64,000 nt of DNA from Fomitopsis serialis (taxonomy: Eukaryota; Basidiomycota; Agaricomycetes; Polyporales; Fomitopsidaceae): positions 62,001 to 126,000 of the forward strand of contig NW_025955011.1 of the NCBI RefSeq assembly GCF_022376445.1, read 5' to 3'. A program made the translations under genes and the position numbers. Positions 28,824-64,000 of the stretch are shown here, piece by piece. Position 1 is the stretch's first letter, and the number at the start of each line of letters is the position of its first letter. A model generated the notes under the pieces. The model made no database searches. It had not been told where the DNA came from and was given only the letters and a program-made list of their open reading frames with translations.

Positions 28824-30876
28824 GATGTCGCGACGTATCATACAGGCCGGAGTGAAGCCGCGGGCAAAGGTGATGCGCACGCGCGTTACCGAAACGTCGA
28901 CGAGGAAACATATTCACTGGTGCCCGCAAGGTTTACAGGCAGAACGCAAATCGATGCACCCATCGCCGGGCCATCTGCCTCTGGGCCGTCCACGACCGGT
29001 CTGTCCTCGCAGCCACTTCCATCGGAACCAGCAGTCGACGACATTCCGAACTTCGACTTTGGGGACCCTGCAAACGCGCACCTACTTCCTGGGCATGCCC
29101 GAAAACGAGCGAAGACCAGGTTGGCCGGCTCGGTGCGTGTTATAGCTGGTCGTCCTTTCGCCGTGCTAATTTCTCGCAGACGCAGGCGGACTTTATGAGG
29201 GAATGGCTCCCGCATCGCGAGGACTTCCTTGAACGGCTTATTGATCTGGAAGCTCCACGCGAGAGGCGGCGGTGCGCCGAGTGCAACGCAGAATGGAGTC
29301 CTTGGAGATGCATTGACTGCATGGGCCAGCCGAGCTTTTGTACAGGGTGCTGCGTCACTGAGCATAAGCGAGACTTCCTGCATCGGGTGGAGCGTTGGAT
29401 TTCCGAAGACGGTCCGTTGCCAGCTGACCCCGAAGTCCAGGAGCCTGACGAGGCGTCCGAGTGGGAGGATGTGGAAAGCGATCTCTTTCCCGCAGAGCCC
29501 TCGAGGCAGCAAGGGCCTGTGCTTGGAGAGTGCGGTATGTACTTATAACGGGGTCGGAAATGATTCTGACTCCAATCAAGGATTTTTTCAGACAAGCTCA
29601 TTGTACAATGTTGGCGCCCGCCTCTTTCTCGGACATGGAGGCGCACCGTGCCCGCTTTTCTCCCTGATTAGCGGGGAAGGGTTGTGTCACAAAATTACCG
29701 TAGTCGATGTTACAGGGGTCCACCATGTTCGAGTCACGTTCTGCCAGTGCTCGAAGCCCGACAGCAAACCGCGGCAGCTTCTCGCGCTCGGACTCTATCC
29801 GGCCTCCGTGCTTGCCCCCCGCACCGCCTTCACCTTCCGAGTACTTGACGACTTCTTGTTGGCCAACAAGATTTCTGGCATTGCGGCTCAAAGCTACTTC
29901 GAGCGACTGCGACGGCTTACCAGCAACGCCTTTCCGGCCCGTGTTCCTGTACGTTCCGCTGAACCTCCCATGTCATTTGTCTCACTTGCACCAGGATCGA
30001 TACAGAGAGCTCTTGCGGACCAGTCGGCAGTGGCGGAATCTCAAATATCGCAAATGGCATGGATATGGCCACGGACGGGGCCCCGTAGGTCCCGGGGATC
30101 TTGCATTGGGATGTGTTGCGTGTCCGCGACCCGGTGTCAATCTGAAGGACGGCTGGGACCGGGAAGCCAACCAGTGAGTACGTCGCGTATTAAAAATCAC
30201 CGTACTCACCATTGGAAGGTGGAAATACACACAGTCATTCGTTATGGACGGTAATTTCAGCGCTGAGCATTTAAAAATGCGAAGCCCAAAAGAGGATGTG
30301 TCCCTTGCCGACGGTCATGGATTTATGGTAACGGAAGAGCCCTACAAATGCCACCTCAAAGAGGCCGTAGAGGTTCGAGAGGTGCGCATTCCATCGTTTG
30401 GAACACGCGCGCACTGACTTTGCGGAGAAATCGAGCTGTCATGCGCACCGGGCCGTCAACCAGGCTAATGCCGATCGCCACGACATGGAGGCCACCGGTA
30501 TCGGAGCAGTAGCATGCGCGAGGCATGGCTGTTTTGTTCCCCATGCAGTGGTCGATTTTCAAAAAGGCGAGCGGTGTGTGCCGCCCACCAGCGTACTCTT
30601 TCGCTTCTGACACGCCTTCGCTACCCAGGCAAATGAACATGGACTATGCACTCTCCCAGGCCTTTCAGTTCTACGCCGGCCTGCAGACCTTCATTCTGAT
30701 GTATGACATCGCCTGTCAGTATAGCAAAAATGCTGTTCCTCGGTTTACGAAGGCTTCGAAGCATTTGACGTGGCCGCTAATGGTGTTGATATTTTGGGGA
30801 ATCGGCCTCTTCCACATCCACGGCCATCAGCGAGACTGCCTGCCCAAGTTTTCACCGGACTTTATTCCTGGGGCAG
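28824..30876 (+). mobile_element. KDZ transposase with CxC2 cysteine cluster, 3' end lost to an insertion
   Basis: KDZ (Kyakuja-Dileera-Zisupton) elements are fungal DNA transposons. The start MSRRIIQAGVKPRAK at 28824 is typical. FDFGDPANAHLLPGH follows, then after an intron (about 29,133-29,180) the CxC2 cluster: CAECNAEW, RCIDC, FCTGCC and HRVERW. The next exon reads YNVGARLFLGHGGAPCP and VVDVTGVHHVRVTFCQCS, then LGLYPASVLAPRTAFTF. After 30,174 come FVMDGNFSAEHLKMR and LADGHGFMV, then AVNQANADRHDMEATGIGA, NMDYALSQA and MYDIACQYSK. Reading stops at FSPDFIPGAG, exactly where an LTR begins at 30,877. About a third of a usual KDZ protein is missing. One frameshift near 28,917 (RKHIH to LVPARF) and another near 30,390 also break it, so it is inactive as it stands. 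Confidence 0.88.
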
Positions 30877-31101
30877 TGTAACGTACTCAAATCACGCCCG
30901 CAGATGCAGTGTATCCAATCTCTATTCAGGAGAGTATCGTATACGCATAGGGCATCTTTAGGCAGTAATAGTGAGGTAGTTGAGGCTAAGGTAAGTGCGC
31001 TGGCGCGCCATACGAGACGAGAGAGCAAACATAGCCAAACATACATGATAAGATATACTATAACGGGTAGGTCTTGATGACCCCCGAATAGACCCGTTAC
31101 A
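30877..31101 (-). repeat. LTR (3' LTR of the minus-strand element)
   Basis: 225 bp, TGTAAC...GTTACA. It ends directly against the purine tract CTCTCCCCCACTGG (plus strand). It interrupts the KDZ transposase reading frame. Confidence 0.9.
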
Positions 31102-31511
31102 CTCTCCCCCACTGGACTCGTCTCACGAGTCCCAGCGAAAGACAATGAAGAGAACATACCATGCATATCTTCTTGTAAGAGATTACTCACCTCAGGTACA
31201 GGTAAGATAAACTGTGGGCCGGGTCTCGGAACACAGCAATCTATGTAGTGCCCACAGGGTCTCCGTGAGCTGACTACATCCTGAAAGTACCCGAGATAGA
31301 GCAATCAATGTAGTGAACATCCCATATGGATGTACACAGCATGATCTCGTGGGCATTGAGTATGTTCAACCATCTGTGGTACAACATACTGCAACAGGTA
31401 TGAAAGAAACATAAAAGAAAAGAAAACATATCATCGCGCCAGCGTACTACTCGCCTGCACCTGAACATACAATGTGTTCAGGCATACAGGAGAGCCTCAA
31501 AAAGCGGACTA

Positions 31512-33017
31512 CTACTCTGAGTAGTAGTCACCACCATCATCATCATCATAGTCACCATCCTCGTCATCATAGTCATCATAGTCTTCGGCAGAATATGCAG
31601 AAGCACCAGATGCAGACGAGGCCATAGGTGAGCTATGGTCATACGAGTCTGACTCATAATAGTCATCAGAGACTACTACTGAGTCGACCTCGTCATCACC
31701 TGGACCACCATCATGTTCCGAAGCCTGAGAGTGCTCGGACTCAACATCATCGTGGTCAGATGGTATGTCAGGGGTGGAATCGTAAGACTCATCACCATCT
31801 GATTGACTCCGAGTCGAAGTCGGGACAAATCCACCACCCATGCCATAGAATACTGACCTACCAGCAGTAACATCGACTGCTGGTTGGTAAGTAGCTACGA
31901 AGGGCACTGATTGATCCCAGAGCTGAGCATAGACCCATTCACGGAGTGGTCGTAGCAACCGAGGCTCGGACCACGATAGTTCGTAGTCTATCGGCCGCAC
32001 TTCCACAGCCCGTTGGAAGTGATCGCGGGCTCTCTGAGCCGCTCGGGTGTACGACTCCGGTCGCGGAGACATGTCATTGAGGACATCTCCCCAGTCGAGG
32101 CCGCTGACCTTGAGTTCAGCCCATGCCTTCCAGTCCCCAGCTTGCTCGGCCTTCGCAGCCTGAGCCAGCTTGAGTTCGAACCGGTCGGTCACAAAACTGA
32201 AACACTCGGCTCGCAGGTGCTCAGCAGTCGGCCACCGAGTATCATCAATATACTCGGAGCGCGCGCCCGCTGTTGGAATGGTACCAATCATGTCGAAGAT
32301 ACCACGCGACATGCTCGGCTTCGAGAATGTCGTCGCAGGTACATGGGTCTGTACATCAAGCCTCGCGCTCGATGTCCAGACCACATGTGTCTCGTCTACT
32401 CGTTCCGACCCCAGTACATCGCGACTCGATGTACTGGTATTCGTCCGAGTCAAGCGGTCACGATTTGCCGTGCCGCTCCCTTCCCCCCTTTGGACTGAAC
32501 CTCCCCGGTAATCGGTGAAGGCGACAGTCTTGTCGCGTACACGCGAGGTTGAATCCTCGTGGATACGGCGATAGCCTGGTCGCGCGGAAGGTTGTTCACG
32601 TTCCGTCAGCGGACGTGAGCGTTCTGTCGACGTCGCCGGCCTTGCTGTCGAGTGCGACGAGGTCGGTATGCCCGTCGTGGACATATTGTTCCTCCTCGGA
32701 CGCGATGTCTGGTCCGTGTGCGTACGGGAAGACGTGGCCACCATGTCTGACGGACGTGGTGACTCAGTCTGTGCTGTACTTGTACTTGTACTCGCCCACT
32801 TGCTAGCTGACGAGTATCGGGCGATGAGCGCCAGGCGGTTTGATTCCAGCTCGGCCATCGAGTACGATGAGGTCAGTACGTCCGGCGACTCGGGCGTACT
32901 GTGCCTCGTCGATTGCTCGGCGACCCGCTTGGCGGTCTTGGCGGTCGAGGTCGTGCGCGCGCGCGAGGTCGGTTCCTCGTGCGTGCGGCGGGTATCCGAC
33001 AAGTAGGGGCTCGACAT
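31512..33017 (-). CDS. Element-encoded protein with acidic Tyr/Asp/Ser tail (3'-terminal ORF)
   Basis: 501 residues, unknown family. The first 220 or so residues are Ser/Thr/Arg-rich and low complexity (SRARTTSTAKTAKRVAEQST). A more structured part follows: FDMIGTIPTAGARSEYIDD, RFELKLAQAAKAEQAGDW, KAWAELKVSGLDW, MSPRPESYTRAAQRARDHFQ and RLLRPLREWVYAQLWD. The tail is very acidic, with repeated SVVVSDDYYESDS and poly-Asp/Tyr coded by a CAT/CAC-rich tract (31,540-31,660). A diverged homologue of the structured part and tail occurs at 63438-64000, in the same position next to its own LTR. Persistence of the frame in two diverged copies argues that the protein is used by the element. It is not a known Gag, Pol or Env domain to me. 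Confidence 0.7.
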   Translation of the reverse strand: MSSPYLSDTRRTHEEPTSRARTTSTAKTAKRVAEQSTRHSTPESPDVLTSSYSMAELESNRLALIARYSSASKWASTSTSTAQTESPRPSDMVATSSRTHTDQTSRPRRNNMSTTGIPTSSHSTARPATSTERSRPLTEREQPSARPGYRRIHEDSTSRVRDKTVAFTDYRGGSVQRGEGSGTANRDRLTRTNTSTSSRDVLGSERVDETHVVWTSSARLDVQTHVPATTFSKPSMSRGIFDMIGTIPTAGARSEYIDDTRWPTAEHLRAECFSFVTDRFELKLAQAAKAEQAGDWKAWAELKVSGLDWGDVLNDMSPRPESYTRAAQRARDHFQRAVEVRPIDYELSWSEPRLLRPLREWVYAQLWDQSVPFVATYQPAVDVTAGRSVFYGMGGGFVPTSTRSQSDGDESYDSTPDIPSDHDDVESEHSQASEHDGGPGDDEVDSVVVSDDYYESDSYDHSSPMASSASGASAYSAEDYDDYDDEDGDYDDDDGGDYYSE

Positions 33018-33903
33018 GGGTGCGTCGAGGTGGACGTGCGTCCGCGCAGGTCTTGGCCATCGCGTTGACTCGTACTTGATGTCGGTCGGGCCGTGGATCG
33101 CGAAGAAGTCAGTACACCTGGCTCAGGTGTACTGCCCTTCTCGTCTTCATTGGCCTTGTCAAGCTTCTCGTTCGTCGCGAAGCTGACCGACTTGCTGGTC
33201 TGAGTGTCGGACGACCTGCCCGGCTTCCTAGTCTTCGACGAGGCTGACTGACGTGAGGATGACAGTACATCCGACAGAGTGGGTGTACTGCCTTCCTTCA
33301 CGCCGTCGTGCTCGCGCGGGGCGGTCTTGTCGCGAACCTCGCGTGTTGTCGAGGCTAATGTGTGCCGTGGTGTCGACGAGCTCGCTGTGCTCGGCGACGG
33401 CATCTTGACGGGGGATGTACCGCGCACGTCCGAGGTCGACTCTTTGTGCGCACGGATCGGAGCTTGATCACGTAGTGCGGGGGCCTGTACCGCTCGTACG
33501 AGCTCGAGTGATACGGCTTGTCTTGCGCACGAGTTACAGTACTCGAGGATGGGGCTGCCGACGAAGTCAGTACATCCTTCGAGTTGGATGTACTGTCCTT
33601 CGCTGAGCACTCGTCCATCGTAGTCGGATCCTTGATGCCGGACGACACAGCCAGTGTCGACTCGGGAGACTTACATTCCGTTGACATGGAGGCAGTCAAC
33701 ATGCTTCTGAACGCGTCGACTGCAGCCTTGTCACCGGTGTTGATCTCGCCGGATACGTTGAGCAACGAGCTCTCCGTATGCGGTGATGTCTTGAAGACAG
33801 TGTAGGCGAGTCTGCCTCTCGCGGTGTCGAACCAGTGGCAGACGTCAATGCGGATGAGTCGATCGACGTGCTCAGAGGTACGTCGATGGCGACAACATCG
33901 CAA
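32873..33903 (-). CDS. Overlapping Ser/Thr-rich frames linking the two large element ORFs
   Basis: Two open frames (32873-33610 and 33355-33903) overlap the 3' end of the 1404-residue ORF and the start of the terminal ORF. They carry the same repeat phrases as the large ORF: CSAKDSTSNSKDVLTSS here, CSTKGSTSNLKDVLTPS inside the large ORF. This suggests that one long repeat protein has been broken by frameshifts between 33,000 and 33,900, or that frameshifting or splicing joins the ORFs. Exact borders cannot be fixed. Confidence 0.4.
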
Positions 33904-36900
33904 GCGTTGGGCTCGCCGTGTACGGTGAGTGAGGTGCTCGCCATACGAGACGAGGATGTCTTGACGATGGTGTCAGACGCGTCGGTCATGTTGGATCGTA
34001 CGCCAATCGCGTCGCTGGGCATTGCATTGGCGATGTACATGTCGGATATGCTCTTGGGTGCATCCGACAGGGCGCTATTGCTGCGTGATGTACCCACGAC
34101 GAGCGACGGGCTCGTCGTGTAGCACTTCGGCTGCGGGATAGGGAGAGCCGGTGGCGAAGGAGGTGCCAGCAGTGAACTGAGTACCCTCGACCAAGGTCCG
34201 GCCTTAGGGGTGGACGCAGACGCGCCGCTTGGTTGTACACCGGTTGCATCGCAGGGCGTGGTCTCCGATATGGAGGTTAGCGTACCGCGCACGCACAAGG
34301 TCGGGTCCTCGTACGTGCGGCGGGTACCCGACGCATAGCGACTCGATGCAGACACGTTGAGGTCGGACCTGCATGGACGTGTGTCTTTGCCATTGACACG
34401 GCCTGCCATGGACACCAAGTCCTTGCGGGTCCGTGTACCAGATGACAGGTCTGGTTGCAGAACCATCGACGGAGCTTCGTGCTCGCGCACGTCTTCGTCA
34501 TCGACACGGCCTGCAAGGGACGTAGAGTCCTTGCGGGTCCGTGTGCTAGATGACAAGCCCAGAGGCCGGGTCTTCACGCCTTCAGGCTCGCGCTGGTCTA
34601 TCTTGTCAGACCCGTCGTGAGCCTCGCGTGTTGCCGAAACCGATGTGGGCAGCGATGTCGATGAACTGGTGGACGTGCTTCTGAGCGCGTCGATCGCGTC
34701 GTCGTCGTGGGTGTGGGCCTCGCCGTGTACAGTGAGTGCGAGGCTCGTTGTACTCGACGATGGCACCTTGATGACGTAGGAGGACGCGACGGCCATGCTT
34801 GATCGCATGCTGTCTGCATCGTTGGACGGGGTATTGACCAAGCTAGCCTTGTGTCTTGACGAGCTAGGCGTGGCCGACGTGCTTCTGGGTACGTCGGCGA
34901 CGGCCTGGTCGCAAGGGTCAGCCTTGTCGGATACGTGGAGCGAGGCGGCTGCTGACGGAGTCAGTACATCCTTCAGGTTGGATGTACTGCCCTTCGTCGA
35001 GCACTTGTCCCGGTCAGTCTCGTCGAGTACGTTGGCTGACAAGCTCTGTGTGCTCGACAAACCTGTCTTGACGATGGAGGTGGACGCGCCGAGCGTGCTT
35101 GATTGCACTCCGGCTGCGTCGCCGGGCGTAGCAGTGACGATGGTCTTGCACCTTGACGGAGGAGACGTCGTCGACGTGCTTCGAGGTACGTCGACGGCGA
35201 CCTGGTCAAAGTTGCGAGTGTTCGTCTTGGCGGTGGAGACGGATGCGTCGGACATGCATGATCGCATGCCGACGGTCTCGCTCAGTGTAGCTTGAACCGA
35301 GCTTGACTTGCACCTTGACGAAGGAAACGTCGCCGACATGCTTCTGAGTACGTCGACGACGACCTGGTCGTGGTTGCAAGTCCCAGTCTTGGAGGTGGAG
35401 GTGGATGTGCCAAGCGTGCTCGATCGCACGCTGGTCGCATCGCTGGACGCAGCGAGCACCACAGGTACACTAGGTGTCGATAGGCTGACCGACATGCTTC
35501 TCTGCACGTCGGTCAGGATCCTTCGCATATGACCTGCGTGTCCTGTGTCTTGATGCTCGGACTCAGAACCGTGGACGGTCCCTTCCCCCTCCTCCAAAAT
35601 TGCAGAAGGAATTGGACTAATACAGTGTACGTCGAGCGAGCTGTTGCTCGACGTACCCAGTACGTGGGGTTTCGAATCCGCGGCGAGCACGTTTGGGCGT
35701 ATCTCGCGCGTGTTGCTGGGCTCGTCGACAGTGAGCACGTCAAGCCTCGAGCTCGGCGTGTTCTCTGTGCGAGGAGCAGGTGTTGTAATAGAATAAGGAG
35801 ACGTGTCGGTCGTGCTGTGTGGCACGCCGAACACGTCGTGCGTCATGACGCCGCTGGGCTCGGTAACCAGGCCGTTACAAGGACTTGCTACCCCAGGACT
35901 GTCGCCGATGCTTGTTGCCGCGAGCTCGATGCTCGTGGTACCATTCATCGGTGTGGGCAGCAGACGCGTATGCGTCGAGACGGGAGCCCGACGGTCACAG
36001 ACAGTGGTTACATCGAACCTCGAGCTCGTTGTACTCCCTGTATGACGTGCGGATGTTGCAATGAAAGGATGAGAGATAGAAGTAAAATACGCGTCTGTCA
36101 TGCTCGATTGCATGCCGAACACGTCGTGCGTCGTGACGGCGCTGGGCCCGTTAGTCAGGCCGTCGGACGGATACAGTGGCTCCGTGAGGTCATCAACACC
36201 GGGTGCAGCGAGCTCGATGCTCGTTGTACCATGCGTTGGTGTGGGCACTGGACGTGAAAATGTCGACATGGAAGCTTGAGGGGTCGCGGCGAGCAAGCTT
36301 GAGGGTGCGTCGCGCGCGTCCCAGGACTCGGTTGCGTGTACGTCGGGCGGAAGGCTCGACGTACGCATAGCGCGAAATGGTAGAGAAGAAGAAAAGGACG
36401 ACCCGGTAGAACTAGCGTGTTCTCCGGGCGCGTCGCTACGCCAAGTAGGGGCGTGCTGGATGGCGATGAGCGCGGACGGAAGTGCGTCGCTCGCATCCAG
36501 AAGGAAAGCATCGGGGGATACATCGAGCGACAGGCTCGACGTATCCGCCGCGTGCGGTGGTAAGGAAACAGAGGGAGACGGCCTGGCAGAGCTCGACGAC
36601 TCTCCAGACGCGCCGTCTCGCGAGGTATGAGCAGCAGGCACACTTGTAGTGCTACTGCACAGGCCCAGTACCCGGTCTTCAACGTCGGAGGGACACGCAA
36701 CGTACTCAATGTTCGTTGTGTTGTCTCCCAACGCGGGCACTGCGGCTGGTGACGTGCGTACCGGGTGCACCTTTGCAGGGTGTACCTCGGGGCCGTCGCT
36801 CGCGCATGAGAGGTCGGCGAGCGCGCCGGGTACATTTGCGAGTACGCCGGGCGCAGCGTCGTCCTCCTCGACAACCTGTACATCGAGTAGTAGGCTCGAT

Positions 36901-37910
36901 GTACACGCTGTGCAGCGGTTCGTAGAAGGACGGGGTACGTCAGACGTGCAGCAATGTACGTCCGACGGGCTACCCTGCAGAATGTCGGGTACGACGCTGG
37001 AGTCGTCCCAGGAGACGAATGTTCCGTCTTCGTGGCCAGCAGGGCGCACGACGGGCTTCTCGTGCGTCGATACGCCTGCTGGCGCGGGCAGTGGCGATGG
37101 AACGGGCACGTCGGACGCGCAGCTCTGTGCGTCTGCCGTGGTACCGTCCAAGGCGGTGGGTACGACGTATGAGTCGTCCCGGAAAGCAGAGGTGCCGTCT
37201 TGGTGACCAGCAGGACGCACGACGAGCTTCTCGTTCGTCGATACGCCTGCTGGCGCGGGCACTGGGAGCGGAGGCGGCGAGGCAGGGACGGCCAGCGAAG
37301 GCGTACCTGCGGTTTTCGAGCCGTCGTGCTCGTTTTCCATGCTCGTCCCGCGCCCTTCCCCCTCCTCTCTCTTCCTCCCCTTCTCCCCTTCCTCCTTCTG
37401 CGTCCCTTTCGCGGCGTTCTCGGTGGCCTGAGCGACCTTGTGGCTCGGCGCTGGACTTGCACGCGCGTTGTGCGAGTCCTGGGCCGCGCGGCTTTGTTGC
37501 ATGTCGCCTGGGTCGCAAAGATCCGGATAGAAGTCGCCAGGGTAGAGAGGAGAGGAGAGGGGATCGAACGGAGGTCTCGCGGATGAAGTTGGAGGCCCGG
37601 GAGAGGAAGGAGACGGCGGTCTTGCGTCGCCTGCAGGGTCTTCGCGCGCTGCTAACTGAACTGACGGGAGTTCAGCTAGCCAGTCGCGGATTCGCGCGTT
37701 CCTGCCCGTTGGGACAGAACACGCGTCTTGATGCGCGTTCTGGCGGTCGAGACGGGTGCCCGGAGGGAGGTCGTCGGCGAGGTGGTGGCGGTCGAGAGCA
37801 GAGCGTTGGGCGCTAGCTCTCTGAGCGCTCACCGCCGACACGGGCTCGTGACGCTCAACACTTCTCGTGTCGAGCGCGTCGCCGGCCGTGTCGAGCGCGT
37901 CGTTGCTCAC
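33696..37910 (-). CDS. 1404-residue repeat-rich element protein
   Basis: The longest open frame in the window, on the minus strand between the LTRs. It starts MSNDALDTAGDALDTRSVER. Two near-identical blocks, VVRPAGHQDGTSAFRDDS and VVRPAGHEDGTFVSWDDS, lie 60 or so residues apart, then Ser/Thr/Ala/Pro-rich sequence. A long C-terminal array has units of roughly 45-55 residues with a core like VDVPRSTSTTSPPSRCK and DASVSTAKTNTRN. Stop-free length of 4.2 kb in GC-rich repetitive DNA could be partly compositional; alternative frames here are also long (minus 36155-37462). No enzymatic motif was seen. It may be structural (Gag-like) or intrinsically disordered. Confidence 0.55.
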   Translation of the reverse strand: MSNDALDTAGDALDTRSVERHEPVSAVSAQRASAQRSALDRHHLADDLPPGTRLDRQNAHQDACSVPTGRNARIRDWLAELPSVQLAAREDPAGDARPPSPSSPGPPTSSARPPFDPLSSPLYPGDFYPDLCDPGDMQQSRAAQDSHNARASPAPSHKVAQATENAAKGTQKEEGEKGRKREEGEGRGTSMENEHDGSKTAGTPSLAVPASPPPLPVPAPAGVSTNEKLVVRPAGHQDGTSAFRDDSYVVPTALDGTTADAQSCASDVPVPSPLPAPAGVSTHEKPVVRPAGHEDGTFVSWDDSSVVPDILQGSPSDVHCCTSDVPRPSTNRCTACTSSLLLDVQVVEEDDAAPGVLANVPGALADLSCASDGPEVHPAKVHPVRTSPAAVPALGDNTTNIEYVACPSDVEDRVLGLCSSTTSVPAAHTSRDGASGESSSSARPSPSVSLPPHAADTSSLSLDVSPDAFLLDASDALPSALIAIQHAPTWRSDAPGEHASSTGSSFSSSLPFRAMRTSSLPPDVHATESWDARDAPSSLLAATPQASMSTFSRPVPTPTHGTTSIELAAPGVDDLTEPLYPSDGLTNGPSAVTTHDVFGMQSSMTDAYFTSISHPFIATSARHTGSTTSSRFDVTTVCDRRAPVSTHTRLLPTPMNGTTSIELAATSIGDSPGVASPCNGLVTEPSGVMTHDVFGVPHSTTDTSPYSITTPAPRTENTPSSRLDVLTVDEPSNTREIRPNVLAADSKPHVLGTSSNSSLDVHCISPIPSAILEEGEGTVHGSESEHQDTGHAGHMRRILTDVQRSMSVSLSTPSVPVVLAASSDATSVRSSTLGTSTSTSKTGTCNHDQVVVDVLRSMSATFPSSRCKSSSVQATLSETVGMRSCMSDASVSTAKTNTRNFDQVAVDVPRSTSTTSPPSRCKTIVTATPGDAAGVQSSTLGASTSIVKTGLSSTQSLSANVLDETDRDKCSTKGSTSNLKDVLTPSAAASLHVSDKADPCDQAVADVPRSTSATPSSSRHKASLVNTPSNDADSMRSSMAVASSYVIKVPSSSTTSLALTVHGEAHTHDDDAIDALRSTSTSSSTSLPTSVSATREAHDGSDKIDQREPEGVKTRPLGLSSSTRTRKDSTSLAGRVDDEDVREHEAPSMVLQPDLSSGTRTRKDLVSMAGRVNGKDTRPCRSDLNVSASSRYASGTRRTYEDPTLCVRGTLTSISETTPCDATGVQPSGASASTPKAGPWSRVLSSLLAPPSPPALPIPQPKCYTTSPSLVVGTSRSNSALSDAPKSISDMYIANAMPSDAIGVRSNMTDASDTIVKTSSSRMASTSLTVHGEPNACDVVAIDVPLSTSIDSSALTSATGSTPREADSPTLSSRHHRIRRARCSTYPARSTPVTRLQSTRSEAC

Positions 37911-38031
37911 GTCGAGCGCGTTGCTCGACTCGAATATAATATTTTTATGTCGCGGCTCATTTCTGAGCGCGCGACGCGTGAACTTGCGAGTTCCGTCCCG
38001 TTCTCGCTGGGCACACCGTTGAGTTGTGTAC

Positions 38032-38652
38032 CTATCCCTTCTCGGGCGCGGATACGGGTCGGCTCGGCCTCTCGCTCGTTGAACTCGGGCTCAGGCTCGG
38101 CGACGGCGGCGCCGTCGAGCCTAGCGCGTGCACCACTCTTGACAGTGGTGCCGAGCTCGTCGGCTGGGCTGGAGCAGGCGGAGACGGGATCTCCGGGCGG
38201 CTCTGAGCAAGCTCGACTTCGGGCTTGAGCTGCTCAGAGCGCGGTGCGCATTCGACCTTGCGGTCGGATGCTACCTGCTCCGTGAGTGCTCCGGCTGAGT
38301 TCTCTGGGTCGGAGGACTCAGTCCGGGCGGTCTTCGAGCGGGAAGACCTGCTACGGCTGCTGGCCTCGGTCAACGCGTTGTCGACCGATTCCAGCAAGTC
38401 CGTTTGGAGTTGCTGTGACTCCTCGAGAGCGGAGTTGATCCGCTGTTGGCTCGCGGCTGCCTCTACGAGGGCAGCCTCCATTCGCTGTTGACTTGCGATG
38501 GATTCCGCGAGCACTTCGTTCAGCCGCTCTTGACTCGCGGCGAGCTTAGCTCGGATTTCCGCGCGCAACGCCTTCAGCCTGCTGCGGGTTCCACTTCGGG
38601 ACCCGCGGCTGCTGCGCGTGGGCTCGGAAGTGTTGGTTGTCGACTCGGCCAT
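38032..38652 (-). CDS. Coiled-coil protein, first ORF of the LTR element
   Basis: 206 residues, starting MAESTTNTSEPTRSSRGSR about 145 bp inside the 5' LTR. The centre is a regular amphipathic helix (RAEIRAKLAASQERLNEVL, then repeated ASQQRM/ASQQRI and ALEESQQLQTDLLESVDNAL), which predicts a coiled coil. The ends are Ser/Arg- and Pro-rich. Position and shape suit a Gag-like assembly protein, but no capsid or zinc-knuckle motif (CCHC) is present, so the role is inference. Confidence 0.6.
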   Translation of the reverse strand: MAESTTNTSEPTRSSRGSRSGTRSRLKALRAEIRAKLAASQERLNEVLAESIASQQRMEAALVEAAASQQRINSALEESQQLQTDLLESVDNALTEASSRSRSSRSKTARTESSDPENSAGALTEQVASDRKVECAPRSEQLKPEVELAQSRPEIPSPPAPAQPTSSAPLSRVVHALGSTAPPSPSLSPSSTSERPSRPVSAPEKG

Positions 38653-38795
38653 ATTCTTGAGATATTGCGAGGTCGACTAGAGTGTTCCAAAAAAGCATAG
38701 GTTCGAGTTCAAGTTCGAGAGTTGTAGAGTTTGTTGCCAGTAGTAGTTCCCCAGAATAGAAGTCTGTTCGAGAGAAGCAGAGGACTGCAAAAAAG

Positions 38796-39018
38796 TGTAA
38801 CACTCAAATCACGCCCGCAGATGCAGTGTATCCAATCTCTATTCAGGAGAGTATCGTATACGCATAGGGCATCTTTAGGCAGTAATAGTGAGGTAGTTAA
38901 GGCTAAGGTAAGTGCGCTGGCGCGCCATACGAGACGAGAGAGCAAACATAGCCAAACATACATGATAAGATATACTATAACGGGTAGGTCTTGATGACAC
39001 CCGAATAGACCCGTTACA
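38796..39018 (-). repeat. LTR (5' LTR of the minus-strand element)
   Basis: About 223 bp, TGTAAC...GTTACA, almost identical to 30877-31101. The flanking sequence on its right (from 39019) is coding sequence of a DDE transposase. It does not match the 5 bp left of the other LTR (GGCAG versus GTCTA). Confidence 0.9.
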
Positions 39019-39019
39019 G

Positions 39020-41207
39020 TCTACGAACACGCACCCTCATGACAACTCCGAGTCCACGGGCTCAGACGCCACAGGCGAGCAATCAACTTCGCAGCCAGTG
39101 TGGCCGGCCTCAGGCTCCACCATTGATTCTGAAGACGAGACTTCGGTGAGCATACATGCACTTTTGTATCTGTGAGCTAGATTCTAACATTGCCCTGCTA
39201 GTTTGCGAGTGTAGTCGAAGACTCACCAGCCATGACCCAAATCTGTGACGACGAGCCGAGTGACTCCGAACAAGACCGCCTCGGGCCTGAGATCGCTGTG
39301 GTGGAGGCTCGCCGCAAAGTCGATGAACTGCTTCGCGACTTACGCCAAGCTCGCAGCATGTCTGGCGGCTCGGAGGAACCCGAGACCGCAATTGATGATG
39401 CGTTGAATGTCCTGTCATACCGGGATTTCCCAGCTCTCAAAGCAGCACAGACTCGACTCACCTTAAAGTCGAAAGACAAGAAACTTGATGTTGTCTTCCG
39501 CAGCCGCATCACGGCAATGGTTGGCACTCTCAACCTCTATCTTGACCCGGCTCTCACCTACACATGGCGGGAGTCATCAGTTCTCGCAGCAAAAGCCGCT
39601 GGACGCAGCTCCGAATACGCACGAACAATTCGACGGTGGCTCCATCAGTATCTGAACTCCAACAAGCTCCCGCTGCACCGATACTGTCGCCCACACCGTT
39701 CAATCCTTGACGACGAGGACCTCTCCGCAGCAATACAAGCTCACCTCATGTCCATCGCGAAAACCGGTTACATCCGCGCAAAAGATATCGTTGACTTTGT
39801 ATCAACTCCGGACATGCGCGACAAGCTCGGTGGCAAGTTAACGATCTCCGAGCGGACGGCACGTCGGTGGCTGCACAAGCTCGACTGGCGCTACAAAAGG
39901 CTCGCGAATGGCATGTACATTGACGGCCATGAACGCAGCGATGTTGTCGAGTACCGCAGCAAGTTTGTTGAGCGCTGGAAGGAGTATGAAAAGCGGATGG
40001 TGACTTACGACAATGATGGCAACATCTGCCACATCCCGAAAGGCTTCCCAATACCTGGTGGTCGCCCATTCCGGCTCATAGCGGCGACCCAGGATGAATC
40101 AACATTCTATGCCCATGACCGCCGAAAGACGAAATGGACCCACAGCTCCGAACGTCCAAAGCCGGTCCGCAAAGGCGAGGGTTCGTCGTTAATGGTGTCC
40201 GATTTTTTGACAGTAGAATGGGGTCGACTCACACATGGAGATGAGTAAGTCTGCCACAAACAAATTTTCATGCGATTGAATGCGCAACTGATTGGGCATG
40301 TTGCATGTAGAGAGGCACGAGTATTCTTTGAAGCGGGGAAAAACCGTGATGGCTACTTCGCGACCGAGGAGTTACTTGCACAGGTCGATAATGCAATCGA
40401 TGTCTTTGAGGAGAAGACAAACGGGTTTGCTACGGGACTCTTCCTCTTCGATAATGCTCCCAGTCACCAGAAGCGAGCGCCGGACGCCCTGTCCGCACGC
40501 TACATGCCGAAGAACCCATCGCAGACGTGGGTACCGAAGGGCGGCACCCGCATGCGTCATGGTCAGCTTCCCAGTGGCGAACCGCAAGATTTCTACTTTC
40601 CGGATGATGACCCTCAGCACCCCGGATGGTTCAAGGGCATGGAGGTCATCATCCGGGAGCGTGGATTATGGCCAGACAGCGGGTTGAAAGCCCAGTGCGT
40701 CGGATTCAAGTGCGAATCTGGCAGGACAGATTGCTGCTGCCGCCGTCTTCTATTCACACAGCCAGACTTTGTGAGCCAGAAGTCTCAGCTGGAAGAGCTG
40801 ATTGAATGTCGCGGTCATATCTGTGACTTCTATCCCAAATTTCATCCAGAATTGAACTTTATCGAGCAGTATTGGGGTGCATCAAAGTACCTTTACCGTT
40901 TATCCCCGGTGACATCTGACATGCAGCAGATGAGGGAGAATGTCAAGGCATGCCTTGATGCTGTTCCGTGGACTCGCATTGTAAGGTAAGTGATCTAGTC
41001 TATCCCTGCCATCCTTTGTTTGTGTTGATTTCGGACATCCGTAGATATGCAAATCGCTCTGCGCGCTTCATCTCTGCATATCAGCAAGGTCTCGATGGCA
41101 CGGAGGCCTACTGGGCTAACCGAAAATACCACGGACATCGCACACTACCATCGAGTTTCGTCGCACAGATCAGGGATGACTGTAAAGAACTAAATAGGCA
41201 TTCGTAA
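39020..41207 (+). CDS. DDE transposase (Tc1/IS630-like), start lost to the LTR element
   Basis: Reading opens directly at the LTR edge with STNTHPHDNSESTGSDATGE, an acidic N-terminal region, so the first exon or start is missing. An intron lies about 39,147-39,200. The helix-turn-helix part is LTYTWRESSVLAAKAAG, YARTIRRWLHQYLN and ISERTARRWLHKLDWRYKR. The DDE catalytic core has QDESTFY (first Asp), LFDNAPSHQ (second Asp) and HPELNFIEQYW (Glu). Introns are at 40,245-40,310 and 40,987-41,042. The last exon (RYANRSARFISAYQQGLDG) ends at 41207. Apart from the lost start it looks uninterrupted. A pyrimidine microsatellite (CTC)n follows at about 41,209-41,230. Terminal inverted repeats were not found by eye. 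Confidence 0.85.
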
Positions 41208-41310: not shown

Positions 41311-42298
41311 TAAGGGGGGTGGTACCTGGCGTCCTCTACCTTATGCTGCGATGCGCACGGACCACGCAGCGAGCAGCGGAGGGGCGGCGCGCACCGAGGC
41401 CTGTTCGCGCCGAAGGAAGGTGGGGGCTGCCCGGGCCCTTGCTGGCTAGCCCGAAGCCGAAGTTGGCCTTCGATCTCGCGCCAGAATCCTTCCACACCTG
41501 CGCTGCCAAGCCCGGCACGCTGAACGGTTAGCTGAGGTCCCTCGCGTTCGCATCCTTGGAAATGGGCGGGTCGAGCTTGCTGAGCGAGGGGCAGTGTCGC
41601 CCTTGGGAGACGTCGCACGCGTTGTCCTCCGAAGGTGCACCGGGCGAAAGAGGCGCGGGTGCGGCGCTTCGCATGTACCGCATGATGCAGTGGATGGGCG
41701 AGCGCATGCCGGGTGTTTCCCGAAGGGCAGCGAGGGGCGCGACAGGGCAGCGGGCGGCAAGCGCCTGGACTGCCAGGCTTGCGCATTCGCAGCCGCGCCC
41801 GCAGCAAGTCGAAGCTGCTGGCACTTCAAATGAGTGGGCGGCAGCTGGCTTGATAACCCGGCGAGCTTACCTTCTTGATGCGGCAGCACTGGAGGTGCGC
41901 GCGCTGCAGCACGAAGGCCGCGGCGAGGTGGTGGCAGCCTTGCCTTGCTGGCACACCCAGCCAATGGCGAACAGGGCGAGGGCAGAGCAGCCAGGGGTGC
42001 AGCATTCGTCCCGAAAGGGTCAGAATGAAGACCACGCTGGCTGGTTACCGCGACACGCTGCTCTGCGGCGGGTGACCTGCGAGGGAGAGGCTGCGAGGGA
42101 GAGAAGAGGCCGGCCGCGCGTCGCGCGCAAGGGCCACCTGCGTTCCCACGGTTTGGGCGCCTCGAACTCCCGGTGCAGCTGCTGCGCGCCCGGGCCCTCA
42201 AAGAAATAACTGCAGCATTCCCAGCAGCTCTGAGTGGTGCCTGTGCTCATTCGTGCTCATTTGCACTACCCATTGAGCCTTTTCTGCGCTGGGTGATC
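41311..42298 (-). repeat. GC-rich dispersed repeat, copy 1, between 11-bp direct repeats
   Basis: The stretch 41,341-42,159 is homologous, in reverse orientation, to 52,714-53,587. The best-conserved part (41,800-42,159) is nearly identical. The segment is bounded by direct repeats AATTGATTACG at 41,300-41,310 and 42,299-42,309, resembling a target-site duplication. Open frames run on both strands (for example minus 41446-42201) but are broken relative to copy 2. No known domain was recognised. A short CAAGAAGGTAAGCT motif suggests an exon/intron border of a captured gene. Composition is clearly GC-richer than its surroundings. Confidence 0.65.
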
Positions 42299-42549: not shown

Positions 42550-44439
42550 GTGATGGACAGTCAGACGAGTCCAGCAGGTTCCTTCGACCTTCGGGGAGAG
42601 TTCTATAGCCGATTCAATCAATATGTAACCTCTGTCCAGGCCACTATGTCGGCTCCGACCGATTCAACTGTTCTTGAGCGCCTTGGAGACGACCTGGACC
42701 AATTCTCGCAGCTCGTCCACCAGGTGAGTAATCCTAAAAATCAGAACTTGGTGCACAATGATGATGTATTGCTGTAGCATGTGTCGGTATTTCCCCGCGA
42801 TGATCTGCAAACTATACAAAATGGGCTTTCGACGATGCAGTTCGACATTCGAATGCAGTATCGTGACGCAGTCGACCGGTCCCACCATGGCCGGCCCATT
42901 ATCCTGGCCGAGGAGCACACCGGTGGCCGCGGCCGCCCCCGATATGTCATTGATCGCGACTGGCTTGCGTGGGCCTATCAGCAGCGGTCCACATCCGGTA
43001 TTGCGCAGTTTCTGCAAGTTAGTCGCACTGTCGTCCGCAACGCGCTGTTGGAGTATGGAATCGCCGAACCACAAGCTAGCCCCTTTCCCCTCGTACAATC
43101 GTCTAGTGAGACATCCGAGCCACATGAAGAAGGAGCAGACGATGACCTCCTCCATCCTGTGCGCGCTTGGCCGCCTGAATCTCAGCCGCAGGTCGCGTCG
43201 TATACAGGTCCACTGTCTACTCTCACTGACAGTGAACTTGATGATTTGATCTTCCGCCTGCGGCAGCACTACATTCGGGCGGGACTTGCAATGCTCGATG
43301 GGATGCTGCGAAGGTTGGGCCATCGCATTCCTCGCACTCGAATTCGCGAATCTCTTCTCCGCATTGATCCTGTTCACCGGGTCTTCGAGCGGATCCGGAT
43401 TCGCAGGCGGAAATACCAAGTCGCAGGGCCAAATGCCTTGTGGCACCACGACGGGCAACATGGTGCGCTCCGAGTCGTCGTTCATGTGAGAATCGCAAGT
43501 GCTCATACCCTCCAACAGGTCTTATTCGGTGGAAAATTGTCATACATGGCTTTATTGATGGCTACTCCCGGCTGATTGCCGCGCTCCGGGCGCATAACAA
43601 TAATCGGGCTGCTACAGTGCTGCTGCTGTTTCTGCAGGCGGTGTATGTCTTTGGTGTCCCATCTCGGGTGCGGGGAGATCATGGAGTCGAGAATCTGGCA
43701 GTGGCCTAGTGGATGGAAGCGAACCGAGGTGGGCAGCGTGGGTCATACATTTGGGGCAGGTATGTACTGCACACAGTATCATCGGACAATATTTACATTG
43801 CCCCGCAGAAGCATACACAATGTGCGCATTGAGCGCCTGTGGGTTGACGTCACTGCACAGGTCGGATCAAAATGGGCAGAGTTCTTCATGCAGCTGGAGC
43901 TACGGTACGGCCTCGACCCGCAGAGTGACCTCCATATCTGGTTGCTCCAATACCTTTTCCTTGATGACATCAATGCGGAACTCGAGTTCTTTGCTGAAGG
44001 CTGGAATCACCACCGGATCCAAATCCGCAATGGTCCGAATTGCTCTCCAGCAGACATGTTTGGCTTTGACATGCTCGTTCATGGTGTGCGGGGTGACCAG
44101 TTGCCAGAAGAGGCTCTGAGCGAAGAGGAGTTGGAGGTGTATGGAGTTGACTGGGAAGCGCTCCGCGAGGAGAGGCTATTACACTCGCATCATGCGAATA
44201 ATGCTCACGATGATGGTTGGTCATCATGGATTGGTAGGTCAGGTCCTCCAGAGCACATGAACGAAGTACCAGTTCAAGCTTTGGAGGATCCAGCCCTTAC
44301 CAATCTATCCAATACTCTGGCAGAGCTCCGAGATGTCATTCATCCATGGGCTGGTCGCGCTGATAGCGAGAGTCTGACTTTGCGCTGGATTAACTCGCTT
44401 CTTTTATTACAAGCTAGGTACCCAAACTTGTTTCTGTAA
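42550..44439 (+). pseudogene. Integrase-core (rve-like) transposase gene with one nonsense codon
   Basis: Introns 42724-42777, 43463-43518 and 43760-43808, all GT-AG and frame-keeping, rebuild one protein of about 570 residues. The N-terminus reads FDLRGEFYSRFNQYVTSVQ, then FDIRMQYRDAVDRSHHGRP and GRGRPRYVIDRDWLAWAY (a helix-turn-helix-like part). The catalytic core shows WHHDGQHGLIRW with the first Asp, FIDGYSRLI, SRVRGDHGVEN with the second Asp, and HNVRIERLWVDV with the Glu, which is an intact DDE triad. The C-terminal part reads GWNHHRIQIRNGPNCSPADM, then VYGVDWEAL. The only break is TAG at 43,707-43,709 (ENLAVA-stop-WMEANRG), where relatives of this core normally carry a sense codon. A single base change may thus have inactivated it. 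Terminal repeats were not identified. Confidence 0.8.
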
Positions 44440-47400: not shown

Positions 47401-49018
47401 GTGTCGGGAAACACAGATACTCACACCAGTTCAATAGTACGGCTGAGCAAATGCGCCACCGCGACCGGCGCTTCTGGTCCTCAGGCGCGCCGAACGCAAA
47501 CTCGGCGCTAATGACTCTCAACGCCTCCCGAGACTGCTGCCACCATCTCGGACCAACAGCAACGCGCCAGAAGCAAAAGCCGAGCGCAACAAGCACAGAC
47601 GAAGGAGATACAAGGATGAGGGGCAGGAGCGACGGACGCACAAAAGGATAGCAGAGGCATGAAAATCGATGGTGAGTCATTAATTGCATACCTACTAGTA
47701 CTAACACACCCCATCCTCTCGCGCCCACCGTCCTCTTGCGCCCTTAGCTCGACCACTTACTTGCTCGCTCACCCGCTTTTCCATTGACCCGCTGTCCCAT
47801 TCACCCACCATATCGCTTGTTTCGCCGCCCCTCTCTCCCGTCGTCCCTCTCGCTGCTCACCCGCCATTCTGATTACCCGCCGTCTCGCCCATCCACTGTT
47901 TCACTTACCACTCGTCCCTCTTGCCCTGTCATCCGCTCGCCCACCATCTCGCTCGACCTGTCGTCAATGAGAAGTTCGGCATACCCACCCGTCTCAACCG
48001 TCTCACCCGCTCGTCTGCTCGCGCAGGCGCACGCACCATTCGTCTGCATGCCCACTCTCACCTCTTCGCTAGCTCGCCCACCCTCCCGCTCTCACATGCT
48101 CGCCCATTGATGATGCTCCGCTGGACACGCACTTCAGGGAGGATGGATTGCGCGTCAGCAATGCAGGACGTACGGGAATGAACAGCGCGGAAGACTTACC
48201 GCAGTCAATGCATTGGCGCATGCTGGACGTGTGTCGCAGTGACACTAGCCCGTGGACGAGGCGCGTTAGCACGCGGTCAGGCAGAGGGTGCGATGTAAGT
48301 ACTGGGACCACGAGAAGGGCGGGGTGGCTCGAGATCTGGAGGGAGAGAACGTGGGCTAGGGGTGCGATCAGGCAGTGTCCACGCTCGAACTTAGTAAGTT
48401 CGAGCGCGGAGCGGGCTAGGTACGAGAGTAGGAAGGACTCAGTCTCTTGATGAATGCGAAAGCGACTGAGGTGCGTCGTCTGTGAGGCTAGGTATATAAG
48501 GCTAACGATCATCTATCCTTCAGGTACCATAACACGTTGCGCGTACATCGCGCTATCGTCGGGCTGCTGCGCCCGACACTCAGCTATGTTCCGCCTCCCG
48601 ATGTACCCGACTCTTGGTTTTCCACAGGTGTCCGTCGACGTTGACACGTAAACACCTCACAGAAGTGTGCTCGACCAGGATGGACATGCGGAGACTGTCA
48701 TTGGCCAGCTCGCTCGCCAGTGCTCAATGTCGGCTTGCTTGTCGCCTCGCTCGCCCGGCGCCCGCCATCTCGCTCGTCCGCACTCACACTTGCACGTGTG
48801 CCCACCATCCCACTCGCCGACTGACTCGCCATCTTGCTGTCTCGCGCAATGTCCCGCAGTAACAACCACAAGACGAACACGTGTGACTGTTACGCCCACA
48901 CACCCTCACACCCTCACGGCCTCTCTTGCCCACAGCCTCTTGCCCACAGCCTCTTGCCCACAGCTTCTCGCCCACGGCTCCTCTCGCCCTCTCGCCTACT
49001 CAGCCACCCACTCACCGA
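44440..49018. other. 4.6 kb without a supported gene, partly pyrimidine-rich repeat
   Basis: Open frames on both strands (for example plus 44500-44787, minus 45731-46363, minus 47357-47728) show no recognisable family or consistent exon chain. The minus frame at 47,357-47,728 reads a hydrophobic stretch ending at a GTGAGT donor and could be one exon of a lost membrane protein, but it stands alone. From 47,760 to 48,110 and 48,705 to 48,850 the DNA is a degenerate array of CGCCCACCATCTCGCT-like units. Immediately before 49,018 are three CTTGCCCACAGC units. Confidence 0.45.
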
Positions 49019-59859: not shown

Positions 59860-60385
59860 GTAACGGTGGACCCGGGCTCGGCCGGAGCACTCCGGGTCCA
59901 CCGTTCGGAGCGGCCGCCGGCAGCAACGAACCGGCCGGAGGGAGGGTGGTGGTTAGGAATGGTCCGGCCGGCCTGTGGTGTAACGTTCCGGCCGGACCTC
60001 AGGCGAACAACCCGGCCGGAGGCCTCGAAAAAATAGGCTTCCTACGGTCCGGCCGGACACAGACCCAGCGTTCCGGCCGGACCCCTTGTCAACGACCCGG
60101 CCGGAGGCCTCGAAAAAATAGGCTTTCTACGGTCCGGCCGGACACAGACCCAGCGTTCCGGCCGGCAACCAGGTCAACGACCCGGCCGGAGGCCTCGAAA
60201 AAATAGGCTTTCTACGGTCCGGCCGGACACAGACCCAGCGCTCCGGCCGGCAACCAGGTCAACGTTCCGGCCGGAGGCCTCGAAAAAATTAGGCTTCCTA
60301 CGGTCCGGCCAGACCCCTTGTCAACGTCCCGGCCGGAGGCGTCGAAAAAATAGGCTTCCTACGGTCCGGCCGGGGCTCATATCAA
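59860..60385. repeat. 85-bp minisatellite with CCGGCCGG blocks
   Basis: Units contain GGCCTCGAAAAAATAGGCTT, CTACGGTCCGGCCGGACAC and GACCCAGCGTTCCGGCC. The GGCCTCGAAAAAA block starts near 60,021, 60,106, 60,191 and 60,276 (period 85), with a shortened unit near 60,339. Incomplete, more diverged units extend left to about 59,860. Each unit carries two to three CCGGCCGG palindromes. The frame stays open in places (plus 59607-60206), but this is a repeat artefact. Confidence 0.85.
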
Positions 60386-63029: not shown

Positions 63030-63205
63030 GGTATGCGCTGTATCCAGTCTCTATTCAGAGGAACTGTCTACACTTGCATACATGGGGCGATGAGGATGGT
63101 AAAGGACTGAGGTCTCGTAGGTGCACAGGCGCGCCATACGAGCCCTCAGGCAAACAATGACAAACATACAAGACGAGAAATACCGTAACGGGAATATCCG
63201 TTACA
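63030..63205 (-). repeat. Diverged LTR of a second element
   Basis: Homologous to the 30877-31101 LTR in three blocks: GCTGTATCCAGTCTCTATTC, GGCGCGCCATACGAG and AACATACA-AGA. It ends GTTACA at 63,205 and is followed by the same purine tract in complement (CCCTCCCCCACTGG). The left end is not certain; no TGTAAC start was found. Confidence 0.75.
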
Positions 63206-64000
63206 CCCTCCCCCACTGGACACGACCACGGGTCCCAGCGATAACCAGAGAAACAGATAGAAAAAAGGAAAAAGAAAGGAAACACACGCAACAACCCAAC
63301 GGTGGTAGCGAGTGGCAAAACAAAGATGATGTTGAACTGTAGACAACGACATGCTAGATCGTGTCAGTGAGCAGACACAACCATTCACCATTGTCATACA
63401 TAACTTGATGGAGTTATGCAACCAGGAACGTAGACTACTACTCGGACTTGGAGTAGTAGTCTGCGTCTTCCGAGTTACCCTCATCTTCGGCAGATAGTGC
63501 AGAAGAACTCTGGATATCCTCCATCTCAGACTGCTCGTAGTAGTCAGAGACTACTACCGAGTTTGTCTCTTCAGACCCTGAACTTCGTGAGTACCACGAG
63601 CTATGGTGCTCGGACTCGGAGAAGTACTCCGACTCAATCTGGTCAGGGTACTCCTCACGAGTGGTGGTATGAGGCTCCTCATCAGAGGAGTTATACCAGT
63701 CAGAGTCATCCCGAGGTTGACTGCGAGGTGGTACAACAAGCCATCCCAGCTTGTTGTAGGCCCAATATCGCACCATCTCCATAGGTAATGGTGCAATGAG
63801 CAGAGGATCAAACTCGAGAGGAACCACTTCCAATTCCCTCTGGAAGTGGTCCCATGCTCGACGAGCAGCACGAGAATATGTCCCCGGTCGCGGGGACATC
63901 TCCTCGATGGCCTGTCCACAGCTGAGTGCAGATCTCTTGCAGTGAGCCCAAATGGCCCACTCGCCATCACTCGCCGCGGATTCGGCCTCGTCGAAATCGT
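63206..64000 (-). mobile_element. Second LTR-family element, partial (runs off the window)
   Basis: Internal region adjoining the LTR at 63,205, orientation minus as in the first copy. It contains the polypurine tract and the 3'-terminal ORF. The rest of the element lies to the right of the window. Confidence 0.75.
63438..64000 (-). CDS. Homologue of the element's acidic-tail terminal protein, partial
   Basis: The frame continues past the window edge. It contains FDEAESAASDGEWAIWAHCK and IEEMSPRPGTYSRAARRAWD, then HFQRELEVVPLEFDPLLIAP and YWAYNKLGWLVV. The tail is rich in Ser/Glu/Tyr with NSVVVSDYYEQSEMED and ends DADYYSKSE. It aligns with the ORF at 31512-33017 over MSPRP-x2-Y-x-RAA-x-RA-x-DHFQR, the P-LL-PL block and SVVVSD-YYE, ending YYS-SE. 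The sequences are well diverged, yet the frame is kept to the same stop position relative to the LTR. Function is unknown. Confidence 0.7.
   Translation of the reverse strand, partial: DFDEAESAASDGEWAIWAHCKRSALSCGQAIEEMSPRPGTYSRAARRAWDHFQRELEVVPLEFDPLLIAPLPMEMVRYWAYNKLGWLVVPPRSQPRDDSDWYNSSDEEPHTTTREEYPDQIESEYFSESEHHSSWYSRSSGSEETNSVVVSDYYEQSEMEDIQSSSALSAEDEGNSEDADYYSKSE

What the first reader, a model, noticed from the sequence alone, without database searches (positions are those of the whole stretch)
30877..39018. An LTR element family with no recognisable pol but with three of its own proteins
Near-identical LTRs and a polypurine tract show a genuine LTR element, yet 7.7 kb of internal sequence encodes a coiled-coil protein, a 1404-residue repeat protein and an acidic-tail protein instead of RT, RNase H and integrase. 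Non-autonomous LTR elements usually lack coding capacity or carry captured genes; one with several long frames of its own, found twice in 64 kb, may be an undescribed group. Basis: structure seen; absence of pol is from reading, not from a profile search.
Basis: partly seen in the sequence, partly recalled or inferred. Interest (0 to 1): 0.78.

Follow-up and report, generated by a model that had tools for sequence, protein, structure and literature searches.

The report
Pol-less LTR element with giant ORF
A family of jumping genes in a wood-decay fungus carries none of the usual copying genes, appears to borrow those of a Ty3/gypsy element through shared control signals, and still keeps one giant protein of unknown origin under natural selection.

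Summary
The LTR element is real: 30877-39018, minus strand, LTRs 97.8% identical, PPT and PBS in place, no pol found. "Three of its own proteins" is wrong: they are colinear pieces of one frame-shifted ORF; eight relatives in the genome carry its N- and C-terminal parts in one open frame of 1,686-1,865 codons. The genome is Fomitopsis serialis. The exact PPT lies at 43 places; 0 of 43 intervals hold a listed RVT_1, RVT_2, rve, gag or RNase H match. Five fetched relatives have 99-100% identical LTRs and 5-bp target duplications. Both ORF ends are under purifying selection (dN/dS 0.26-0.29; shifted frames 1.0-1.6). A 10-kb Ty3/gypsy family in the same genome shares the LTR start, a 70-nt LTR-end-plus-PBS block and a near-identical PPT, and is the likely mobilising partner. 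Three capped protein searches found no relative in a named other species. Best reading: a coding, non-autonomous LTR family, like wheat RLG_Quinta or Sabrina in lifestyle, but with a giant ORF without recognisable Gag. Mobilisation in trans is inferred; the protein's function is unknown.

The parts
30877..31101 (-). 3' LTR (225 nt), TGTAAC...GTTACA
31102..31115 (-). polypurine tract, CCAGTGGGGGAGAG in sense orientation
   Evidence: PPT followed by NN-TGT at 43 places in the genome, control 0
31512..33122 (-). last piece of the broken ORF (536 codons); conserved C-terminal domain and acidic tail ending DYYSE-stop
   Evidence: dN/dS 0.26-0.27 among copies
31917..32222 (-). four-helix part of the C-terminal domain (residues 34-135 of the 269 folded)
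   Evidence: AlphaFold2, ten-residue blocks 76-94 pLDDT over residues 31-130; whole model mean 60.2, pTM 0.44
32873..33670 (-). fourth piece of the broken ORF (265-codon frame; the match covers residues 64-222)
   Evidence: 93% identical to P0006 residues 188-346
33355..33972 (-). third piece of the broken ORF (205-codon frame; the match covers residues 59-165)
   Evidence: 100% identical to P0006 residues 82-188
33696..38090 (-). second piece (1464-codon frame): Ser/Thr/Pro-rich, internally repetitive middle
   Evidence: 44% identity over 1,629 columns to P0003; repeats D4-D8
38032..38676 (-). first piece (214-codon frame): start codon and coiled-coil-like N-terminus
   Evidence: dN/dS 0.29 among copies
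38783..38795 (-). primer-binding-site region, CTTTTTTGCAGTC in sense orientation (differs from the exact family form)
   Evidence: family form WTTTTTRCGCTCC 54 hits, control 3
38796..39018 (-). 5' LTR (223 nt)
63033..64000 (-). 3' end of a second family member: LTR-similar stretches 63033-63192, PPT 63203-63219, C-terminal domain from 63450 to the window end

Best explanation
A non-autonomous LTR retrotransposon family of Fomitopsis serialis. Its RNA, made from the LTR, carries a primer site, LTR-end leader and PPT like those of a resident Ty3/gypsy family, is copied by that family's reverse transcriptase in its particles, and is inserted by its integrase with a 5-bp target duplication. It codes for one giant protein (open frames of about 1,700-1,900 codons where both conserved ends are in one frame): a basic, coiled-coil-like N-terminus, a fast-evolving Ser/Thr/Pro-rich middle, and a four-helix C-terminal domain with acidic tail. 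Shown: LTR anatomy, target duplications, no known pol domain, single ORF, purifying selection at both ends, shared cis signals. Inferred: mobilisation in trans by this partner. Guessed: that the protein works on the element's RNA or particle (packaging, particle structure or target choice) and can act in trans, because members without its C-terminal domain or with broken frames have moved recently.
For: PPT-NN-TGT at 43 places, control 0; PBS form at 54, control 3; 33 of 43 PPT sites pair with a PBS 5.3-13.5 kb away, and 0 of 43 intervals overlap a listed RVT_1, RVT_2 or rve match or a gag or RNase H match. Five of five fetched relatives: LTRs 99-100% identical, 5-bp target duplications. N- and C-terminal matches lie in one frame in eight copies. 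dN/dS 0.26 C-terminal (157 pairs), 0.29 N-terminal (26 pairs); shifted frames 1.02-1.56. Partner LTR-plus-PBS query retrieves 16 pol-less copies over positions 148-217, 77-79% identity, E about 2-3e-7. Partner PPT CCAAGGGGGGAGAGTGTAACG against CCAGTGGGGGAGAGTGTAACG. At 4 of 8 TTTTTTACGCTCC sites RVT_1 lies about 4 kb downstream, then RNase H and rve, the gypsy order.
Against: No experiment; the partner shares only short signals and differs in the LTR middle. 10 of 43 PPT sites had no exact PBS; for them 9 kb upstream was assumed, which runs off the contig in four (C78, C466, C704, C444). RVT_1 and rve searches scored 150 of 159 and 150 of 153 candidates. A pol too divergent for Pfam is not excluded. 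The partner copy read (C158) has no target duplication. Of the other 4 of 8 TTTTTTACGCTCC sites, C25 has RVT_1 19 kb off and three have none listed near. At three places (C40, C412, C516) a fragment of the C-terminal domain lies about 2.1 kb upstream of, and on the same strand as, degenerate RVT_1 and RNase H matches. The one read (C412) is a truncated, stop-containing remnant typical of this family (87.6 bits); whether it is nested debris or part of a chimeric element is open, because the sequence in between was not obtained.
Confidence: 0.82

Rival explanations
1. The giant ORF is a Gag diverged beyond recognition, so this is a semi-autonomous gag-only element (TR-GAG, RLG_Quinta or RLG_Sabrina_SA type).
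For: Lifestyle and partner signals are as in the wheat pairs; a 21-column SR-rich resemblance of the N-terminus to the partner's Gag (52% identity, hhalign probability 1.8%, E 0.027); helical C-terminal domain; a C-terminal-domain fragment upstream of RVT_1 at three places, although the one read looks like a remnant of this family.
Against: No Retrotrans_gag match to the protein or inside the intervals; no significant similarity of the C-terminal domain to the partner's Gag (probability 0.4%). But the partner's own Gag matches that profile only weakly (E 0.14), so the profile is a blunt test.
Confidence: 0.25
2. The ORF is a captured host gene carried as cargo.
For: No transposon domain recognised; cargo capture is known for LTR elements (recalled).
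Against: 28 of 35 C-terminal-domain matches lie in intervals ending in the family PPT; of the other seven, C260, C148 and C476 are on contigs with family LTR matches and the rest are pieces on C516, C40 and C412. No host copy outside the element setting was recognised. Three protein searches give only F. serialis names; the five unnamed hits have contig lengths of this genome.
Confidence: 0.08
3. One reading: an element with three separate proteins.
For: Three long frames exist.
Against: The frames are colinear with relatives' proteins, two further frames fill the gap, and eight copies have both ends in one frame.
Confidence: 0.02
4. A pol gene is present but unrecognisable, so the element is autonomous.
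Against: Five pol/gag profiles give 27 to 147 matches each elsewhere in the genome but none in these intervals (70, 93); the stretch before the C-terminal domain is fast-evolving (dN/dS 0.64), unlike a polymerase.
Confidence: 0.02

Closest known systems
RLG_Cereba / RLG_Quinta of einkorn wheat (PMC11302176, abstract and passages seen)
   Same: Non-autonomous Ty3/gypsy family that keeps an ORF, shares LTR ends and PBS (and, by the abstract, PPT) with one autonomous family and is proposed to be mobilised by it; its ORF also has a domain of unknown function.
   Different: Quinta's ORF is clearly Gag; here no Gag similarity was found, and the host is a fungus.
[quoted passage not shown]
   Same: Families without RT and INT that share little more than LTR termini, PBS and a promoter motif with the autonomous family; some Sabrina variants encode other short proteins.
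   Different: Here one giant ORF with purifying selection at both ends.
TR-GAG elements of plants (search listing only; definition recalled)
   Same: LTR element with coding sequence but no pol.
   Different: Defined by a Gag domain, not found here.
LARDs (recalled; the term appears in the listing)
   Same: Large non-autonomous LTR elements without pol.
   Different: LARDs are non-coding; this family codes.

Membership tests
LTR retrotransposon | near-identical LTRs with TG...CA ends | tested here: met
   five relatives 99-100%
LTR retrotransposon | target-site duplication | tested here: met
   5 bp in five of five fetched relatives; not in the window copy itself
LTR retrotransposon | PBS and PPT next to the LTRs | tested here: met
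   which tRNA, if any, primes was not identified
Ty3/gypsy, autonomous | RT, RNase H, integrase inside | tested here: not met
   0 of 43 intervals
Non-autonomous partner of a Ty3/gypsy family (criteria of PMC9744471) | same PBS | tested here: met
   the window copy's own PBS differs slightly
Non-autonomous partner of a Ty3/gypsy family (criteria of PMC9744471) | conserved LTR termini | tested here: met
   TGTAACG start identical in window and partner; 3' ends GTTACA against GTTATA
Non-autonomous partner of a Ty3/gypsy family (criteria of PMC9744471) | active at the same time | tested here: inconclusive
   partner C158 LTRs differ by two substitutions and one indel; fetched family copies 99-100%; no population analysis
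Non-autonomous partner of a Ty3/gypsy family (criteria of PMC9744471) | shared promoter motif / co-expression | not tested
   no expression data
TR-GAG / gag-only element | Gag domain | tested here: inconclusive
   no profile match, but the profile is weak on the partner's own Gag
LARD | no coding capacity | tested here: not met
   single ORF with purifying selection at both ends
MIT-domain protein | MIT three-helix fold | tested here: inconclusive

The most novel reading that the evidence does not exclude
The giant protein is a new class of retrotransposon protein, not derived from Gag or Pol, by which a non-autonomous family commandeers another family's particles (for example by binding the shared leader and the foreign Gag), and whose C-terminal helical domain has itself become dispensable in cis, giving a three-tier chain of autonomous element, coding parasite and truncated parasite.
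Probability: 0.25. Interest if true: 0.75.

Novelty: new variant of a known kind. Interest (0 to 1): 0.5.

Why it matters
Non-autonomous LTR elements usually lose their genes or keep Gag. A pol-less family that keeps a giant, unrelated-looking protein under selection, beside a visible partner with matching signals, makes a testable case of how such parasites evolve tools of their own, and shows how such ORFs enter fungal genome annotation as orphan 'uncharacterized proteins'.

Tried and rejected
Pfam on window frames and on three long ORFs gave only sub-threshold matches; on ten C-terminal domains nothing at E up to 10. PDB by sequence: nothing meaningful. Fold searches: no match with E under 0.001 in the PDB or viral libraries; MIT domains head the PDB lists, not used as evidence because helical bundles give such scores by chance; I saw no capsid among the rows shown (50 per list), which does not exclude one. 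Partner Gag against N- and C-terminal profiles: no significant similarity. An exact complement of the PBS was looked for by eye in the partner LTR (self-priming); none seen. No tRNA in the window to test the primer. Copia origin, considered because the PPT looked copia-like from memory, rejected: the PBS-sharing family carries RVT_1 then rve, and no RVT_2 match lies in the intervals. Literature: seven searches (two searches returned no paper) showed no description of this family in the listings and passages seen; the library holds open-licence papers only. PMC12810828 (passages) and PMC5408684 (abstract and outline) were not close.

Limits and rows dropped: protein searches took candidates of restricted length, and searches scored only the 7,992 and 7,991 candidates sharing most words. 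In dN/dS, L035 (stop inside), identical sequences, the three window-like copies, and pairs with fewer than 15 differences or saturated were left out. The stretch before the C-terminal domain has a weaker signal (median 0.64, up to 0.92). The C-terminal domain was not found in four of five fetched relatives (L076, L078, L079, L080), which counts against its being needed in cis.
Full report
What is there. The repeats at 30877-31101 and 38796-39018 are a true LTR pair. The minus strand carries the PPT directly before the left LTR and a PBS-like stretch directly after the right one, so the element reads from 39018 to 30877. This copy lacks a target duplication. Its left flank is part of a KDZ transposase gene that stops at the LTR (PF18758, E 1.4e-12, profile positions 82-174 of 217; CxC2 just upstream), while the right flank leads into a piece with weak HTH and DDE_3 matches. 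The two flanks do not look like halves of one site, so this copy was rearranged after insertion or is misassembled.

One protein, not three. The window frames of 214, 1464, 205, 265 and 536 codons align in order with relatives' proteins. In the genome, matches to the N-terminal piece (74 matches, 105 candidates) and to the C-terminal piece (35 matches, 38 candidates) fall in one uninterrupted frame in eight copies: C146 1861, C144 1865, C12 1843, C16 1783, C257 1804, C126 1791, C28 1797 and C788 1686 codons. Other members have open frames of 2118 and 2524 codons with a different end. NCBI carries one such ORF as an uncharacterized protein of Fomitopsis serialis, 1814 residues, on a contig of 307,180 bases, the length of C335; this identifies the genome. 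It has 66.2 Mb in 806 contigs.

A family without pol. The exact pattern PPT-NN-TGT occurs 43 times, its reversed control 0. The PBS form occurs 54 times, control 3. Pairing by script gives 33 of 43 PPT sites with a PBS on the same strand, 5,330-8,150 bases away in 32 cases and 13,498 in one; for the other 10 a 9-kb stretch was assumed, which runs off the contig in four (C78, C466, C704, C444; the C444 length is that of P-search and listings). RVT_1 and rve were scored for 150 of 159 and 150 of 153 candidates.

Exceptions. 28 of 35 C-terminal matches lie in these intervals. The other seven are on C260, C148, C476, C516 (two), C40 and C412. Three of them (C40, C412, C516:7813) lie about 2.1 kb upstream of degenerate RVT_1 and RNase H matches on the same strand. 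The C412 one is 69 residues of a typical family C-terminal domain with a stop inside, then breaks off into other sequence without a Pfam match. The equal spacing suggests that one arrangement was duplicated. I take it for nested debris, but a chimeric element is not excluded.

Recent movement. Of five relatives fetched, LTR identity is 100% in four and 99.1% in one (a match that runs into the flank), and all five have a 5-bp duplication (GCCAG, CCCGG, CCGCC, ACAAG, ACTAG). In four of the five the C-terminal domain was not found, and at least two are frame-broken (L076, L079), so the complete protein was not needed in cis for these copies to move, unless they broke afterwards.

The protein is kept by selection. 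Over the C-terminal 230 codons the median dN/dS is 0.27 in 205 pairs (0.15-0.51, 22 sequences), and 0.26 in 157 pairs of 19 sequences without window-like copies (0.15-0.54); the same alignment read in the two other frames gives 1.56 and 1.02. The N-terminus gives 0.29 in 26 pairs of eight sequences (0.24-0.82), other frames 1.26 and 1.37. About 490 codons upstream of the C-terminal domain give 0.64 in 88 pairs (0.49-0.92). So the two ends are constrained and the middle much less. Of 24 loci read, 23 end DYYSE, DYYSESE or DYYSKSE; L035 does not.

What the protein is. No Pfam or PDB relative was found. Protein searches gave 1, 10 and 12 hits; those with a name are all F. serialis, and the five without have contig lengths equal to contigs of this genome. 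AlphaFold2 gives four helices in residues 34-135 of the C-terminal piece, with blocks of 76-94 pLDDT over residues 31-130, and low confidence in the acidic tail (mean 60.2, pTM 0.44). Best fold matches are MIT domains, below any safe threshold.

The partner. Eight places with TTTTTTACGCTCC were listed; at four (C12, C158, C374, C805) RVT_1 lies about 4 kb downstream on the same strand, followed by RNase H and rve, the Ty3/gypsy order. C25 has RVT_1 19 kb off, inside a 31-kb LTR pair; C342, C539 and C668 have no RVT_1 near. The LTRs of the four lie about 10.0 kb apart. The C158 LTR begins TGTAACG, ends GTTATA, and over its 3' part and the PBS aligns with the pol-less family (GAATAGAGACTGGGTGCAGCGTAT, then CTTTTTTACGCTCC). 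Searching the genome with this LTR plus PBS returned 14 partner LTRs and 16 pol-less copies, the latter over positions 148-216 or 148-217. The 14-nt PPTs differ at two positions. Seven PBS hits belong to neither family (C8:143652, C140, C279:103985, C357, C594, C668, C778), with no RVT_1 or RVT_2 match within 15 kb (by eye), so I saw no other candidate partner among exact PBS matches. The PBS and LTR-terminus criteria used for wheat pairs are met (PMC9744471, passages).

How it probably works. The shared block covers what should be the R-U5 end and the PBS in the RNA, the PPT is needed for second-strand synthesis, and the shared LTR start is what integrase would bind; these roles are general knowledge on Ty3/gypsy elements and are inferred here. 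The purpose of the protein is not shown. I think it most likely acts on RNA or particles in favour of its own family, shared in trans among copies.

Place among known things. In lifestyle it resembles wheat RLG_Quinta, Sabrina and WHAM. It differs in having one giant ORF without Gag similarity. A survey of fungal LTR elements (PMC3248453, passages) mentions non-autonomous elements but none like this in the passages seen. I rate it a new variant of a known kind.

Noticed in passing
29199-30875: CxC2 domain and a KDZ transposase fragment that stops at the left LTR.
   Followed up: partly
39202-40989: Right flank: weak, sub-threshold HTH and DDE_3 matches, perhaps a Tc1-like transposon remnant.
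   Followed up: no
41775-42159 and 52715-53099: 385-nt inverted repeats, 98% complementary, 10,555 nt apart, enclosing an integrase-core-like frame (rva_4, 43576-44439) and an aconitase-domain frame (48652-49761): possibly a large DNA transposon.
   Followed up: no
60976-61824: TET/JBP oxygenase domain (E 1.3e-11); such genes are reported in fungal DNA transposons (PMC12730594, search listing).
   Followed up: no
59961-60373: Tandem copies of an 85-nt GC-rich unit.
   Followed up: no
2353-5651: KR, phosphopantetheine and thioesterase matches in neighbouring frames, likely a polyketide-synthase-type gene.
   Followed up: no
L076, L078, L079, L080: Members whose ORF ends without the conserved C-terminal domain although their LTRs are 99-100% identical.
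   Followed up: partly
L084 (C412:261200-262300); also C40:55288 and C516:7813: Truncated C-terminal-domain fragment of this family about 2.1 kb upstream of degenerate RVT_1 and RNase H matches, same arrangement at three places.
   Followed up: partly
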